From Halorubellus sp. JP-L1 (GTDB lineage: Archaea > Halobacteriota > Halobacteria > Halobacteriales > Natrialbaceae): DNA of 64,000 bases. The notes under the pieces were generated by a model that saw only the letters and a program-made list of their open reading frames with translations, was not told the origin of the DNA and made no database searches. Shown one piece after another: positions 5,503-58,344 of this stretch; the stretch's first letter is position 1; each line of letters begins with the position of its first letter. Both the position numbers and the translations under genes were made by a program. The stretch is from the NCBI RefSeq assembly GCF_011440375.1, contig NZ_JAAOIR010000002.1, positions 496,001 to 560,000 on the forward strand, given 5' to 3'.

Positions 5503-6420
5503 TCAGATGTCGGCGAGGAAGAAGTCGAACGCGCTCGTCGGTTCCGTGCCGGTGACGAGCACGACGCGGTCGTCGACCGAGATCTCGGTGCGCTGGAAGT
5601 TCTCGAACGTCCCGCCGTCCTCGTTTGTCGCGACCCAGTCCTCGACGTCGCCCTCGTCGACGTCCGCGGCCTCGTCGAAGACGAGCGCGAACGTCGTCTC
5701 GACGCCGTCGTCGACGAGCGTCGACGTGACGCCGCGGGCGACCTCGCCCCGGAACTGGCCCTCGTCGGTGTCCGTCGAGTCTGTCTCGGCGTGCGTGCGG
5801 ACCGACTGGATCGTGCCGGCGTCGAGCGCGTCCAGGAGCGTCTCGAAGTCGGCGTCGTCCTCGACGTAGCTCTCGGCGTCCCCGGCGTTCGCGTCGACGA
5901 TCGCCTGGAGGATTCGTTCGGCGTCGTCCGCGCTCCCGAAGATACCCGTGGACTGGGCGACGACGACCGCGTCGTCGCCGATGCCGACGGCGGCGTCCTC
6001 GTCCGGGCCGACGTACGCGTCGAACCCCTCGTACTCGCCCTTGGCGACGAAGTCCTCGCCCTTGAGCGTCGACGCGACGTCGTCGGCGTCGAACTCGGCG
6101 GCGAGGACGCTGTTCCGACCGAACACGAGTTGGGCGTCGGTGTCAGCGAACCCGAACCCGACGAGGTCGCGCGCGTCGCTCCCGAACGCCCGCATCGCGT
6201 CGTACACGTCGGCGTCGAAGTCGCCGGCCCGGTCGGCGATGGCGGCGGGCGCGTACCGGAGCGCGAGGTAGTGGTCGACGTCCGCGATCGTCCCCGGCTC
6301 GTACAGCCAGTCGCCGGGCGCGGCCGCGGTTCCGTCGCCGAGGATGGTCGAACAGCCCGCGACTGCGACCGCACCGGAAACGGCCGTCGCTTTCAACAGT
6401 GAACGTCTCGTGCGTGTCAT
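5503..6420 (-). CDS. Tat-exported lipoprotein of unknown function
   Basis: This 305-residue protein begins with a Tat-like signal (RTRRSLLKATAV) that ends in a lipobox with Cys23 (AVAGCSTILGDG), so it is probably exported folded and lipid-anchored to the outer face of the membrane. The rest is acidic with repeated Asp/Glu-rich turns and no cofactor motif I recognise. There are two similar alpha/beta halves (about 55-165 and 170-305), each with strands followed by short helices. It appears monocistronic. Probably a haloarchaea-specific surface protein; no function can be assigned. Confidence 0.85.
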   Translation of the reverse strand: MTRTRRSLLKATAVSGAVAVAGCSTILGDGTAAAPGDWLYEPGTIADVDHYLALRYAPAAIADRAGDFDADVYDAMRAFGSDARDLVGFGFADTDAQLVFGRNSVLAAEFDADDVASTLKGEDFVAKGEYEGFDAYVGPDEDAAVGIGDDAVVVAQSTGIFGSADDAERILQAIVDANAGDAESYVEDDADFETLLDALDAGTIQSVRTHAETDSTDTDEGQFRGEVARGVTSTLVDDGVETTFALVFDEAADVDEGDVEDWVATNEDGGTFENFQRTEISVDDRVVLVTGTEPTSAFDFFLADI

Positions 6421-54197: not shown

Positions 54198-55595
54198 GTG
54201 GGGTCGAAGCGTGCCGTCGCCGGCGCACTCGTTGCTCTCGCAGCGCTGGCGCTCGCGACCGCTGGCGGGCTCGCGGTCGCGGACGTCGACGGCGACGGCG
54301 TGCGGTCGCTCTCCGAACTCGACGCCGGCACGGACCCGCTGGTGGCGGACTCCGACGGCGACGGGCTGGACGACGGCGCGGAACGCGACGCCGGCACGAA
54401 CCCGCTGGTGGCGGACTCCGACGGCGACGGGCTCGGGGACGGGCGCGAAGTCCACGATCTCGGGACGGACCCGCTGGCGACCGATACGGACGATGATGGA
54501 CTCGCGGACGGCCGCGAAGTCGAGTCGACGGGTACCGATCCGCTGGTCGTCGACACGGACGGCGACGGGCTCGGGGACGACCGGGAAGTCACCGCGATCG
54601 GAAGCGACCCGACCGAGGCAGATACGGACGGTGACGGCCTCCGGGACGGGCGCGAAGTCCGCGACCTCGAGACCGATCCGACCGAGGCGGACACGGACGG
54701 CGACGGACTCGCGGACGGTCGCGAGGTCGAGGTCGTCGGCACCGACCCGACGGTCGCGGACACCGACGGCGACGGCCTCGACGACGGCGTGGAGGCGGCG
54801 GAAACCGGCCCGCTCGCGGCCGCGGACCCGCTCGCGCGCGACGTCTTCGTCGAACTCGACTACATGCGCGGCGAGCGCCCGGACCCGGACGCCGTCGCGC
54901 TCGTCGTCGACCGGTTCGCGAACGCACCGATCGAGAACCCGGACGGGTCCACGGGCGTCGCGCTCCACGTCGTCGTCGACGACGCCATCCCGAGGGAGCC
55001 GACGACGAGCGAGTTCGACAGCGTCCGCCTCCGGCTCTCGCACTTCGACAACACCGCCCGCGGCTACCACCACGCGATGGTCGTCGCGGACGCCCGCGCG
55101 ACCGGCGAGTCCGTCGCCGGGTTCGCGACCACCGGCCACGTCGTCCTCCAGACCCACGGCGACGACGGCGACGCGTACACCACGCGCGGCCAGGCGCACG
55201 TCCTCATGCACGAACTCGGGCACTCCCTCGGGCTCTCCGCCACCCGCTACGCCGGCATCGACTCGCACGCCGTCCCCTACGACGACTACGAGAGCACCAT
55301 GAACTACAACTCGCCCTGGGAGGCAGTCACGTACAGCAGCAGCGGCGCGTTCGACGACTGGGCGTACCTCGACAAGCACATGTACGCCCCGCCAGCGTGG
55401 CGCCTCCCCACCGCCCGGAACGCGAGCGCGACCACGAGCGCGAGCGCGAACGAATCCACCTCAACTGCGAGCTCCGTCCGGGCGTCCCCGAACTCACCCA
55501 CCGACGCTTCGGCGATCACGCCCTCATTCAGACTTGGTCAGGATACGCTTCGAACTCCATTTCCGGTACGTCTACATCGCGGTCAGAAATGCTAG
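54198..55595 (+). CDS. secreted calcium-repeat zinc metalloprotease, C-terminus ending at an island junction
   Basis: This 465-residue exported protein starts with GTG and a signal helix (about 5-25). Eight thrombospondin type-3/EF-hand-like calcium repeats of 22-23 residues (about 29-210; for example DTDGDGLADGREVEVVGTDP) follow. A zincin domain (about 215-400) has HELGH (in HVLMHELGHSLGLS) and a Met-turn-like STMNYN. The third zinc ligand is not obvious. After residue about 400 the sequence becomes a Ser/Thr/Ala tail, and the last 15-20 codons lie in AT-rich DNA that looks foreign and overlaps an antisense remnant, so the native C-terminus may have been lost or replaced. Confidence 0.85.
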   Translation: MGSKRAVAGALVALAALALATAGGLAVADVDGDGVRSLSELDAGTDPLVADSDGDGLDDGAERDAGTNPLVADSDGDGLGDGREVHDLGTDPLATDTDDDGLADGREVESTGTDPLVVDTDGDGLGDDREVTAIGSDPTEADTDGDGLRDGREVRDLETDPTEADTDGDGLADGREVEVVGTDPTVADTDGDGLDDGVEAAETGPLAAADPLARDVFVELDYMRGERPDPDAVALVVDRFANAPIENPDGSTGVALHVVVDDAIPREPTTSEFDSVRLRLSHFDNTARGYHHAMVVADARATGESVAGFATTGHVVLQTHGDDGDAYTTRGQAHVLMHELGHSLGLSATRYAGIDSHAVPYDDYESTMNYNSPWEAVTYSSSGAFDDWAYLDKHMYAPPAWRLPTARNASATTSASANESTSTASSVRASPNSPTDASAITPSFRLGQDTLRTPFPVRLHRGQKC

Positions 55596-55713
55596 CAATC
55601 ACCGGTCTTGACTTCCAAAACAGAGTCATATCGGGACGGTTCTGTCCGACTCTCGGTGCCTTCCCGGACGATGCATCGTAGAAACAGCCGTTAGGCCCAT
55701 CTTCTCCATTTAT
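55528..55713 (-). pseudogene. start-less protein remnant
   Basis: The minus strand is open for 62 codons between TAG and TGA and reads like a real protein: FYDASSGKAPRVGQNRPDM then LFWKSRPVIASISDRDVDV then PEMEFEAYPDQV and stop. No start codon precedes it, so it looks like the 3' end of a broken gene. It overlaps the metalloprotease tail antisense. I do not recognise the family. Confidence 0.4.
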
Positions 55714-55750
55714 CTACCCATATACAATTCTCCCAGCCACTACAATTAAA

Positions 55751-56311
55751 TTGTACTCTCCGAAATCAGATGATGTGCGAACGATTCCCCGCTGGTCAAA
55801 ACGGTTGGCAATTGTACTTCCTACGGTTCCTATTCTCGGACTCCCTCTATTGGATTTAGTTGTGTGCGATATTGGGCGCATGTCCGGATTCTTTGGGCTT
55901 GTTCTGAACGTTATCGGTGCTGTAATAATAGCTCTGCCTGACGTGCCAAGACTCGACCAGTACGCACTTCCCCGTGATCTCCGGCACTCTTGGAGAACAT
56001 TTCAGGATAATAAACAGCTGACTCCAACAGATAAGGGATTTGAATCGATGGTAGAGTTGATAAACCGACAAAACGGTAGACTGGATTATGACCGCTCCTG
56101 CAATCTCCTTAATATTGATTACAAGGTATACGGGAACCCCAGCATCTCGGCAGGATTTGTGGAGGATGACGGCAAACCTCCGCGATATAAGATAGCTGAT
56201 TGGGTTACTATGCAGATGTGGATTGAAGATGTCCGAGATAATGTACGAGCATCAGGATTTATTATATTTATGTCCGGATTTATGTATCAGATGTTGAGCT
56301 ACCTTCTTTGA
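55751..56311 (+). CDS. membrane protein of the AT-rich island, unknown function
   Basis: This 186-residue protein has two N-terminal membrane helices (about 20-38 and 45-65), a soluble middle (about 75-160; RQNGRLDYDRSCNLLNIDYK) and a C-terminal helix (about 168-185). Codon use is AT-rich (many A/T third positions), unlike neighbouring genes. Starts are weak: TTG at 55751 or GTG at 55775, and no ATG in frame near the start. No family recognised. Likely acquired by transfer. Confidence 0.65.
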   Translation: MYSPKSDDVRTIPRWSKRLAIVLPTVPILGLPLLDLVVCDIGRMSGFFGLVLNVIGAVIIALPDVPRLDQYALPRDLRHSWRTFQDNKQLTPTDKGFESMVELINRQNGRLDYDRSCNLLNIDYKVYGNPSISAGFVEDDGKPPRYKIADWVTMQMWIEDVRDNVRASGFIIFMSGFMYQMLSYLL

Positions 56312-56654
56312 ATGTTCTGTCTCTACCGATTTCTGTTCCTGCACTGTGTCCAGATTTCCTGCCATTCTCGGACAGTCGAACTCACTAATCGCTGGTTCAG
56401 GGTGAGTCGGCCGCCCAGCGTGTTGTGAATCGGCTTCCTTCCGCTGTCCCCCAATTCGGGCCGTGTAGATTGGGCAATCGACACGGGCCGATTCTGTGCT
56501 GGATGCAGATCGACCTGAACCGTCAGAGCATACAGTACAGCGTTTGAAACCCGAGATTATGAACGGTCAAATCCTTATATTACCCTCCAACTCGTGGCGA
56601 TAGATGCGATGTACAAGCGAACTAAGGTGATTGGCGCAACGAACGGAGGCATGC
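56312..56654. other. 343-base intergenic stretch of the island with a possible gene remnant
   Basis: No complete gene is seen. On the minus strand 78 codons are open from 56556 to the TAG at 56323, including LGGRLTLNQRLVSSTVREWQ, but without a start, so this may be a second decayed fragment. A TATA-like CTTATATT (near 56575) could drive the following small genes. Confidence 0.45.
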
Positions 56655-56843
56655 ATGAGTAACATAGTTGAAGGAGTGGAGGGTGTGATCGCGTTCGTCG
56701 TGAGCGGGTTCATACTCATTCTGATGGGCTCGGCGGTTGAATCCAGCTCGGTGCTTTACAATCTCAGCACCTTCGGCCTGTTCATGATCCTGCTTGGGGC
56801 TGTACTGGCAGTCGGGATTGTCGCAACAATTATAGGGAAATAA
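56655..56843 (+). CDS. 62-residue two-helix membrane protein
   Basis: Short protein of two predicted helices (about 10-30 and 38-60) with little else. The ATG has a Shine-Dalgarno-like GGAGG 6-8 bases before it, and the next gene follows 2 bases after the stop, so the two form an operon. AT-rich codon use. Family unknown; in an island such a pair could be a small membrane-associated module, but nothing identifies it. Confidence 0.65.
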   Translation: MSNIVEGVEGVIAFVVSGFILILMGSAVESSSVLYNLSTFGLFMILLGAVLAVGIVATIIGK

Positions 56844-56845
56844 CG

Positions 56846-57406
56846 ATGGGGGTCAGAGAGTATCTTAAGGAAAAGAAGGAGGGTCGAATCACTGACGAGA
56901 GGATACTTAATGTCATTCGAGAGAGTAATGCTGGTTTCGTTGGTACAACTGAAGTCAGTGATGACGATCGAGTCGATTTGAAAGAGGATGCAGTCCGTAA
57001 TCGTTTGGAAGATCTCGAGAAAGAAGGTAGGATCCATCAGAAGCGAATCGGGCATCCGGAAAGAGGGAATCTGGCTTGGTATTTGGCGGATGACGAGCGC
57101 GATCGCCCTGTCTTAGCAGAACGCTATTGGTTTGCTCGGGTTTGTGAAGAAGGGCGGGTGATTTCAGGGAACGTGCTGCGTATCGGTGGTGTCGCTGCAT
57201 TAGCTGGAATGATGATGATTCTATTATCCATCAGCGCCGACCTTTTTGACCTTCAATTTGCCCTCGTTCAGCCATCGACAGCGGGGAGTGTCGGCTTTGC
57301 CTTAGCGATTGCAGGATTCTCGAACGTTATGATTGGAGGTGGATTTAAATTTGGTCTGAGCTTTACTGAGGCAGTCGTTACCCGCCGGTCGTCTTCGAGA
57401 AGTTGA
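56846..57406 (+). CDS. winged-helix and two-helix membrane protein
   Basis: This 186-residue protein has a predicted winged-helix-like N-terminus (about 15-85; DERILNVIRESNAGFVGTTE then RNRLEDLEKEGRIHQKRIG and LAWYLAD) and two membrane helices (about 112-134 and 145-170), with a basic C-terminus (TRRSSSRS). A membrane-bound DNA-binding or regulatory protein is plausible. It follows the small membrane gene in an operon. Unrecognised family; AT-rich composition indicates transfer. Confidence 0.7.
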   Translation: MGVREYLKEKKEGRITDERILNVIRESNAGFVGTTEVSDDDRVDLKEDAVRNRLEDLEKEGRIHQKRIGHPERGNLAWYLADDERDRPVLAERYWFARVCEEGRVISGNVLRIGGVAALAGMMMILLSISADLFDLQFALVQPSTAGSVGFALAIAGFSNVMIGGGFKFGLSFTEAVVTRRSSSRS

Positions 57407-57474
57407 ATCTAGGACTTTGGCTGGAAATCGCTCGGCATCTAAGGGGGTTCCGAATGGCTGAGGATAAATGACTC

Positions 57475-57924
57475 TCACGATTTGAAGACTTGAGCGTACG
57501 GAACCTTGTGTTGATACTTGAACTCCTGATGACCCGCCTCATTCCAGCCGTCGACGAGCGTTCGCTGTACTGTCGAGGGTTTCATTCGGCGTAGTCTAAC
57601 GACGCCGTCGTTGTGGTCGTAGAGCACGAACACGACCCAGGCGACGCCGCTTGCGTCGGATGCGCGGAGCGAGCGGAGTTGGTCGCGTCGGAGTCGAAAG
57701 CGTCCGTTCGCGCTGTAGGTGTCGCCGATCTCGGAGTGCGTGGATTTCACTTCGTACTTCGCACCGGTCGATTCGAGCATGCCGTCGTACCACTCGGCGT
57801 CGTCGGGCCGGTGCGTGAAGCCGTAGACTGCCGCCGCAATCTCTTCGGCGAGCGTCGCGGAGTCCTCCTCGAGCTGTCGGCGTTCGCGACGGGACAGGTC
57901 GCGGAGTGGAACCGTCTTGCTCAT
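57475..57924 (-). CDS. PD-(D/E)XK-like nuclease fold protein
   Basis: This 149-residue protein contains YDGMLESTGAKYEVKS, with an Asp followed at suitable spacing by E-x-K, the core of PD-(D/E)XK nucleases. An N-terminal helical LEEDSATLAEEIAAAVYGF and a strand-rich remainder (RLRRDQLRSLR, GVAWVVFVLYD) support a small restriction-like fold. The start ATG is chosen because upstream sequence is not conserved-looking. GC content is typical, so it is outside the AT-rich island. Function (restriction, repair or other) unknown. Confidence 0.75.
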   Translation of the reverse strand: MSKTVPLRDLSRRERRQLEEDSATLAEEIAAAVYGFTHRPDDAEWYDGMLESTGAKYEVKSTHSEIGDTYSANGRFRLRRDQLRSLRASDASGVAWVVFVLYDHNDGVVRLRRMKPSTVQRTLVDGWNEAGHQEFKYQHKVPYAQVFKS

Positions 57925-58191
57925 GACCCACTCGTGGCATCGCCCTGGTCGTCGTCGGTCGCGTCGTCGTAGTCGGTGACGGTCGCGGGCTTCGTGTCGA
58001 ATCCAATCTACCACGCGCACGCGTCGACAACTCAACCACGGTCAGGAACGAATACAATACACCAGAACTGACTCTCCCCGATTCGAAACGCGCGAGACTT
58101 CCTTCGGTCGTCTCACTGGTCCCGCTCGCGGTGCTCGCGGGGACGGGGGACAAGCCGACCACTCTCGGGTACGAATCGACTTCAGAGAAGG

Positions 58192-58265
58192 TCCGCCCTC
58201 CCCGATTTGAACGGGGGGCAAGTCGATCTACAGTCGACTGCTCTACCAGTCTGAGCTAAGGGCGG
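58192..58265 (-). tRNA. tRNA-Tyr (anticodon GTA)
   Basis: Reads on the minus strand as a complete cloverleaf: acceptor CCGCCCT/AGGGCGG with discriminator A (C1-G72 as in archaeal tRNA-Tyr), D-arm GCTC/GAGC, anticodon stem GTCGA/TCGAC around CTGTAGA (anticodon GTA), and T-arm CCCCG/CGGGG around TTCAAAT. No intron. Confidence 0.97.
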
Positions 58266-58344
58266 ATGCATTCATTGGTTGGTCCTCGGGCGATTATAAG
58301 GGTTTTCTTTCGATGTGGGGTGCGGCGGGCGGATGCGTGGCACG

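What the first reader, a model, noticed from the sequence alone, without database searches (positions are those of the whole stretch)
55528..57470. AT-rich island with unknown membrane-protein genes
Composition and codon use drop sharply compared with flanks. It carries a 186-residue membrane protein and a tight two-gene unit: a 62-residue two-helix protein and a winged-helix protein with two membrane helices. None is recognised. A small membrane-linked regulatory, toxin or defence module is possible.
Basis: partly seen in the sequence, partly recalled or inferred. Interest (0 to 1): 0.6.

Follow-up and report, generated by a model that had tools for sequence, protein, structure and literature searches.

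The report
Mobile membrane-tethered regulator gene pair
In a salt-loving archaeon, a small stretch of foreign DNA beside a tRNA gene carries a tightly coupled pair of membrane proteins, one of which can probably bind DNA from the membrane; the same pair, usually headed by a tiny extra reading frame, recurs on plasmids and chromosomes of many related archaea, has no name, and looks like a self-regulating switch carried by mobile DNA.

Summary
The stretch is the lowest-GC 2 kb of the window (0.49 against 0.68) and lies in an insert beside tRNA-Tyr that the same-genus genome G001 lacks. Three membrane-protein genes and a fourth gene (D) are there.

The upstream 186-aa gene (A) is not part of the unit. 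The unit is B (62 aa, two transmembrane helices) plus C (186 aa, winged helix plus two long helices). All 23 of 391 haloarchaeal genomes with a confident B have C directly downstream. Six named plasmids and one circular contig with phage genes carry the pair.

New here: a conserved promoter element just upstream of a TATA-like box, and a 14-25-codon micro-ORF whose stop overlaps B's start in 19 of 24 loci (3.2 expected; 1 of 230 other genes).

Best reading: C is a membrane-tethered regulator, built much like Sulfolobus ArnR, co-made with partner B and acting mainly on its own promoter. Regulator and target are inferred, not shown. A toxin/antitoxin-like or exclusion role for B remains open. 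No profile library names B or C; PADLOC gives no defence match.

The parts
55397..58156 (.). insert absent from the same place in G001 (same genus); left edge lies between 55397 and about 55533, right edge near 58156
   Evidence: DNA match to G001 ends at 55396 and resumes at 58156; the G001 region holds the TSP3 gene, tRNA-Tyr and CdrL but no A, B, C or D
55751..56311 (+). gene A, 186-aa membrane protein (N-terminal hydrophobic region 21-62, C-terminal helix); in the island but not part of the unit
   Evidence: AlphaFold2 model poor (pLDDT 55.6)
56558..56568 (+). conserved promoter element TATGAACGGTC, inferred binding site of C or another regulator
   Evidence: conserved upstream of B in 6 relatives; block score above all of 200 shuffles; exact TATGAAMGGTC once in the whole own genome
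56575..56582 (+). TATA-like box TTATATTA; centre about 30 nt before the micro-ORF ATG
   Evidence: sequence and alignment
56609..56662 (+). micro-ORF of 17 codons (MYKRTKVIGATNGGMHE) whose stop overlaps the start of B
56655..56843 (+). gene B, 62-aa protein with two membrane helices
   Evidence: relatives
56846..57406 (+). gene C, 186-aa protein: winged helix (1-80), then two 43-residue helices (91-133, 143-185) carrying two membrane segments
57475..57924 (-). gene D, 149 aa, phrog_2095 (unknown function); in the insert, not part of the unit
58074..58087 (+). 14-nt partial repeat of the tRNA-Tyr 3' end (13 of 14), possible old attachment site
58191..58266 (-). tRNA-Tyr (GTA), probable integration hotspot
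   Evidence: L044 9191-9266; G001 also has a partial copy of the tRNA 3' end near its own tRNA-Tyr

Best explanation
B and C form a mobile, self-contained, membrane-tethered regulatory cassette. Transcription starts next to a conserved element and TATA-like box and probably yields an mRNA that begins at the AUG of a 14-25-codon micro-ORF. Ribosomes then pass by termination-reinitiation to B and on to C, so B and C are made together. C sits in the membrane by a helical hairpin with its winged helix in the cytoplasm; B is a two-helix partner that probably packs against C's hairpin and sets whether C can bind the element upstream of its own promoter. The cassette would work like the archaeal membrane-bound one-component regulators ArnR/ArnR1, with a dedicated small membrane partner as in ToxR-ToxS. 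Shown by computation: gene pairing, coupling geometry, conserved element, fold of C, hydrophobic segments. Inferred: leaderless start, topology, B-C contact, DNA binding, self-regulation, and that plasmid or virus genes may also be controlled.
For: Pairing: all 23 genomes of 391 with B at E <= 1.3e-6 have C directly downstream; the gap is -4 to +12 nt in 22 of 23 loci, the exception being G001, where B has an in-frame TGA. Fold: winged helix plus two long helices, pLDDT 89.3; two hydrophobic segments in B in every copy but the one with the stop codon, and two or more in C. Promoter: block score 49 of 60 for TATGAACGGTCA in six relatives against a maximum of 42 in 200 shuffles, nothing in the downstream control; a second subfamily (G046, G166, G253; C 47-52% identical) shares the 9-mer TAGAACAAT just upstream of a TATA-like sequence, 0 of 200 shuffles. 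Exact TATGAAMGGTC occurs once in the own genome and once on each of three BC-bearing elements, each time just upstream of B, which fits self-regulation. Micro-ORF: 19 of 24 loci against 3.2 expected from shuffled upstream DNA; 10 of 14 subfamily representatives against 1.6, P about 1e-7; 1 of 230 other genes and 3 of 90 genes with NTGA starts. Selection on both genes: dN/dS 0.12 and 0.11 over 7 copies of one subfamily. Coupling at overlapping ORFs is demonstrated in Haloferax by Huber et al. 2019 (PMC6728339, passages); 72% leaderless transcripts there (PMC4983044, passages).
Against: No binding, expression or contact was measured. The element could serve a host factor or be a basal promoter part; by my estimate a single occurrence of an 11-mer in a GC-rich genome of this size is also not far from chance. 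It is not a palindrome, as a dimeric winged helix would often bind. No target other than the own promoter was found, so what the switch is for is open. B is broken in 2 of 24 loci while C is intact (G001 nonsense; G392 5' truncation), so B is dispensable at times. Two B-like ORFs without C were seen (G345, G221; weak hits), and five C-like winged-helix/membrane proteins without B (L147-L151). Most matches of the C profile cover only the winged helix.
Confidence: 0.5

Rival explanations
1. Toxin-antitoxin-like pair: B is a small membrane-disrupting protein; C holds it in check by binding it in the membrane and by repressing the operon.
For: Small size and hydrophobicity of B; tight gene overlap and plasmid carriage; B is the gene found broken while C stays intact (2 of 24 loci), and no intact B with a broken C was seen in those 24 loci.
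Against: C is itself a membrane protein, unlike usual antitoxins (recalled). Two B-like ORFs stand without C. No PADLOC or Pfam toxin match. B is under purifying selection like C, which says nothing for toxicity.
Confidence: 0.25
2. Exclusion or immunity cassette: B-C in the membrane blocks entry of related plasmids or viruses, or shapes the envelope of the host cell for the element.
For: Carried by plasmids and by a circular 34-kb contig with a phage tail tube gene, a phage integrase and Orc1/Cdc6.
Against: No adjacent conserved entry or virion gene; neighbours differ between loci. No match in the phage collection for B or C; single-sequence scans of viral contigs with C and A found no relative.
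Confidence: 0.12
3. DNA tether for the mobile element: C anchors plasmid DNA to the membrane for partition or replication.
For: DNA-binding domain on a membrane anchor; plasmid carriage.
Against: The exact conserved element is found once per element, at the promoter, not as an array; pHSR-CO, the JP-L23 plasmid and pSTJ003 carry ParA genes of their own; chromosomal copies persist.
Confidence: 0.06
4. Decaying cargo: the island is a remnant of an integrated element and BC has no current role in this host.
For: No integrase was seen in the insert; nearly all of it is foreign in composition; the same-genus copy of B carries a stop codon.
Against: In this window micro-ORF, B, C and the promoter element are all intact, and the one subfamily tested is under purifying selection.
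Confidence: 0.07

Closest known systems
ArnR/ArnR1, membrane-bound one-component regulators of the Sulfolobus archaellum (PMC6396743, passages read)
   Same: N-terminal HTH domain and two C-terminal membrane segments; acts on promoter boxes
   Different: ArnR has HAMP and sensor domains between; C has none (helix 91-133 starts right after the winged helix). The passages read do not describe ArnR as part of a mobile two-gene unit with a B-like partner. Sequence relationship not tested.
ToxR-ToxS and similar bacterial membrane-bound regulators with a small membrane partner (PMC7496328, abstract start in a search listing)
   Same: membrane-anchored winged-helix regulator plus a separate membrane partner protein
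   Different: C has two membrane helices and no sizeable external domain; bacterial; homology not tested
Solo winged-helix proteins of haloarchaeal genomes and mobile elements (most of the weaker matches; phrog_2440)
   Same: C's DNA-binding half is of this family
   Different: most lack the membrane hairpin and the B partner
Haloferax uORFs and overlapping gene pairs (PMC4983044 and PMC6728339, passages)
   Same: short ORFs in leaders and stop-start overlaps are known there
   Different: a conserved position and overlap in front of one gene family across many genera was not described in the passages read

Membership tests
ArnR-type membrane-bound one-component regulators | N-terminal helix-turn-helix domain | tested here: met
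   AlphaFold2 model and PDB profile hits to winged helices
ArnR-type membrane-bound one-component regulators | two C-terminal membrane segments | tested here: met
   hydropathy at 113-131 and 146-164; helices 91-133 and 143-185
ArnR-type membrane-bound one-component regulators | HAMP and sensor domains between HTH and membrane part | tested here: not met
   no room: the winged helix ends about residue 80 and helix 91-133 follows; so not filed as a member
ArnR-type membrane-bound one-component regulators | sequence homology with ArnR | not tested
   no ArnR sequence was fetched
ToxR-ToxS-type pairs | membrane-bound winged helix with adjacent membrane partner gene | tested here: met
ToxR-ToxS-type pairs | single membrane helix and external sensor domain (recalled definition) | tested here: not met
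   two helices, about 10-residue loop
Toxin-antitoxin systems | small adjacent gene pair with tight coupling | tested here: met
Toxin-antitoxin systems | match to a known toxin or antitoxin family | tested here: not met
   Pfam, NCBIfam, PADLOC
Toxin-antitoxin systems | one protein toxic, the other neutralising | not testable with these tools
   needs expression assays
Known anti-phage defence systems | match to a PADLOC model | tested here: not met
   A, B, C, D: 0 families

The most novel reading that the evidence does not exclude
An undescribed class of mobile archaeal cassette: three translationally chained reading frames (micro-ORF, two-helix partner, membrane-tethered winged helix) that sense a membrane event, such as an incoming plasmid or virus or loss of membrane potential, and switch their own expression, with B acting as the membrane effector. 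The micro-ORF, whose amino-acid sequence differs between subfamilies, would be a translational start device rather than a peptide.
Probability: 0.3. Interest if true: 0.65.

Novelty: new variant of a known kind. Interest (0 to 1): 0.48.

Why it matters
[quoted passage not shown] BC would add a compact kind, spread among plasmids and chromosomes of haloarchaea (23 of 391 genomes sampled, 6 named plasmids), with a ready test site: an 11-base promoter element, a protein of under 190 residues and a genetically tractable host group. The conserved micro-ORF gives a natural case for studying how leaderless initiation feeds termination-reinitiation.

Tried and rejected
Provirus genes in the phage collection: no match for B, C or D. 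Viral contigs: no relative of C or A from single-sequence scans; an alignment scan was not possible. Gene A as third partner: rejected. A simple tRNA-attachment reading of the island's edges: only a 14-nt partial tRNA repeat was found, and the DNA next to the tRNA matches G001, so the exact integration event is unresolved. C as an array-binding partition protein: not favoured. Structure of A: model too poor to use. In-frame N-terminal extension of B in the G386-type copies: considered and dropped, since the overlapping micro-ORF is present in 8 of the 9 loci with a four-segment C (the eight similar copies plus G135), the exception being G392 with a truncated B. Papers: seven searches showed no description of this pair; that is limited to those term sets and that open-access library.

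Full report
What is there. The AT-rich stretch is real: GC 0.47-0.50 against about 0.58-0.74 around it, the lowest of 249 windows of its length in the 64 kb. The window belongs to a genome (G000, 3.76 Mb) that I take for haloarchaeal from its CdrL and FtsZ2 genes and from its relatives, which among named records are all haloarchaea. The left flank is a TSP3-repeat protein with weak metalloprotease matches.

Insert. In the same-genus genome G001 the TSP3 gene, tRNA-Tyr and CdrL genes are neighbours with no A, B, C or D between them. DNA similarity stops at 55396 and resumes at 58156. So the foreign segment is about 2.6-2.8 kb and includes gene D. A 14-nt partial copy of the tRNA 3' end lies at 58074-58087, and G001 has its own partial copy near its tRNA. 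This fits an integration hotspot, but the exact event is not resolved, and with one empty site a deletion in G001 is not formally excluded.

The unit is B plus C. A profile of B (alignment A1) found 29 of 391 class genomes at E <= 0.001. The 23 with E <= 1.3e-6 all have C directly downstream. Of the other six, I looked at four: two are B-like hairpins without C (G345, G221) and two lie inside longer frames (G163, G374); G175 and G171 were not examined. The C profile matched 98 of 391 genomes at E <= 1e-12, mostly by the winged-helix half alone. Five longer C-like proteins without a B were checked (L147-L151); none had a two-helix ORF upstream. Four plasmid records hold C over at least 80% of its length: Haloarcula sp. 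JP-L23, Halobacterium hubeiense, Halanaeroarchaeum sp. HSR-CO and Natronosalvus rutilus, each with a small ORF abutting upstream. Two more named plasmids, of Halorubrum salinarum and Haloarcula sp. SYNS111, carry a C with four membrane segments; by record length and place they are the contigs of G244 and G378, where B was seen. The Halorhabdus amylolytica copy spans the ends of a 34,082-b contig whose termini overlap by 54 b, so it is most likely circular; that contig encodes Orc1/Cdc6, a phage integrase and a phage tail tube protein. Eight copies of the four-segment type are 87-93% identical in DNA over the pair, across three families, with breaks in similarity close to the pair in several comparisons, which indicates recent horizontal spread. 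Neighbouring genes otherwise differ.

Fold. From 18 sequences (alignment A3) AlphaFold2 gives C a confident model: winged helix, then two helices of 43 residues. Foldseek finds only winged-helix regulators near the top, best PadR at E 1.8e-3, none at 1e-3 or better, and nothing at 1e-3 among viral models. Profile search against the PDB gives TFE, ArsR-type and ZitR winged helices. Invariant residues lie in the winged helix and just after it. Topology (winged helix inside) is an inference.

Promoter and leader. In six relatives (window, JP-L23, Halorhabdus, G342, Halobacterium hubeiense, G390; C 51-75% identical to the window's) an element TATGAA(A/C)GGTC or a close variant precedes B; a TATA-like TTATAT follows in four of the six. 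Its block score exceeds all 200 shuffles, while DNA after C shows nothing. A second subfamily has a different element, TAGAACAAT, at the like place. For other subfamilies I saw only weaker similarity. Between the TATA-like box and B lies a short ORF starting with ATG 41-74 nt before B and ending inside B's start region. It meets the criterion in 19 of 24 loci. Misses: G392 (B truncated), G046, G166 and G253 (one subfamily), and G332 (a second, more distant in-frame ATG). Shuffled upstream DNA gives 3.2 of 24; with one representative per subfamily, chosen by me, the result is 10 of 14 against 1.6, P about 1e-7. I set the -35 to -80 bounds after seeing the first table, so P is indicative. Controls: 1 of 230 genes, 3 of 90 with NTGA starts. 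In the window the ATG lies about 30 nt after the centre of the TATA-like box, close to the spacing of a leaderless start (spacing rule recalled). Haloferax is known for leaderless transcripts (72%) and uORFs (PMC4983044, passages) and for coupling of overlapping genes (13 of 14 pairs tested there and in E. coli; PMC6728339, passages).

Reading. The facts fit a regulator that is membrane-tethered, co-made with a small partner, and acting on its own promoter. ArnR/ArnR1 have the same order of parts (PMC6396743, passages) but carry HAMP and sensor domains that C lacks, so C is not filed as an ArnR. Results against: B can be lost while C stays (G001, G392); the promoter element is unproven as C's site; no purpose beyond self-regulation is visible. 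A toxin-antitoxin-like reading stays open at about one in four.

Gene A belongs to a scattered family (32 of 391 genomes at E <= 1e-5), with motif GLxLDxxGAxxLAxPDxP and a C-terminal helix. Of the genomes with both A and BC (G000, G244, G253, G378), only the window has them adjacent. Gene D is phrog_2095 (E 6e-9), 54% identical to a protein of an 11.6-kb Halobacterium litoreum plasmid.

Noticed in passing
57475-57924: Gene D (phrog_2095) has a conserved EVKST motif that by eye recalls PD-(D/E)XK nucleases (recalled, not tested); closest relative on an 11.6-kb Halobacterium litoreum plasmid.
   Followed up: partly
54198-55595: TSP3-repeat protein with an HELGH motif (weak metalloprotease profile hits) whose C-terminal tail differs from its G001 counterpart just where the insert begins.
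   Followed up: partly
55751-56311: Gene A founds or joins an unnamed haloarchaeal membrane-protein family found in 32 of 391 genomes.
   Followed up: partly
L147-L151: A second group of winged-helix proteins with two membrane segments and no B partner.
   Followed up: partly
L042 about 6208-6390 (G001): B with an in-frame TGA where relatives mostly have W or F; C downstream intact.
   Followed up: yes
L133-L138, L038, L039: Eight similar four-segment BC copies in three families of the order, a sign of recent transfer.
   Followed up: partly
L036 3089-3910: TnpB/Cas12f-like C-terminal domain on the Halorhabdus circular contig.
   Followed up: no
L166 3213-3410 and L167 3684-3872: B-like two-helix ORFs without a C gene next to them (coordinates in L167 on the reverse strand).
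   Followed up: partly
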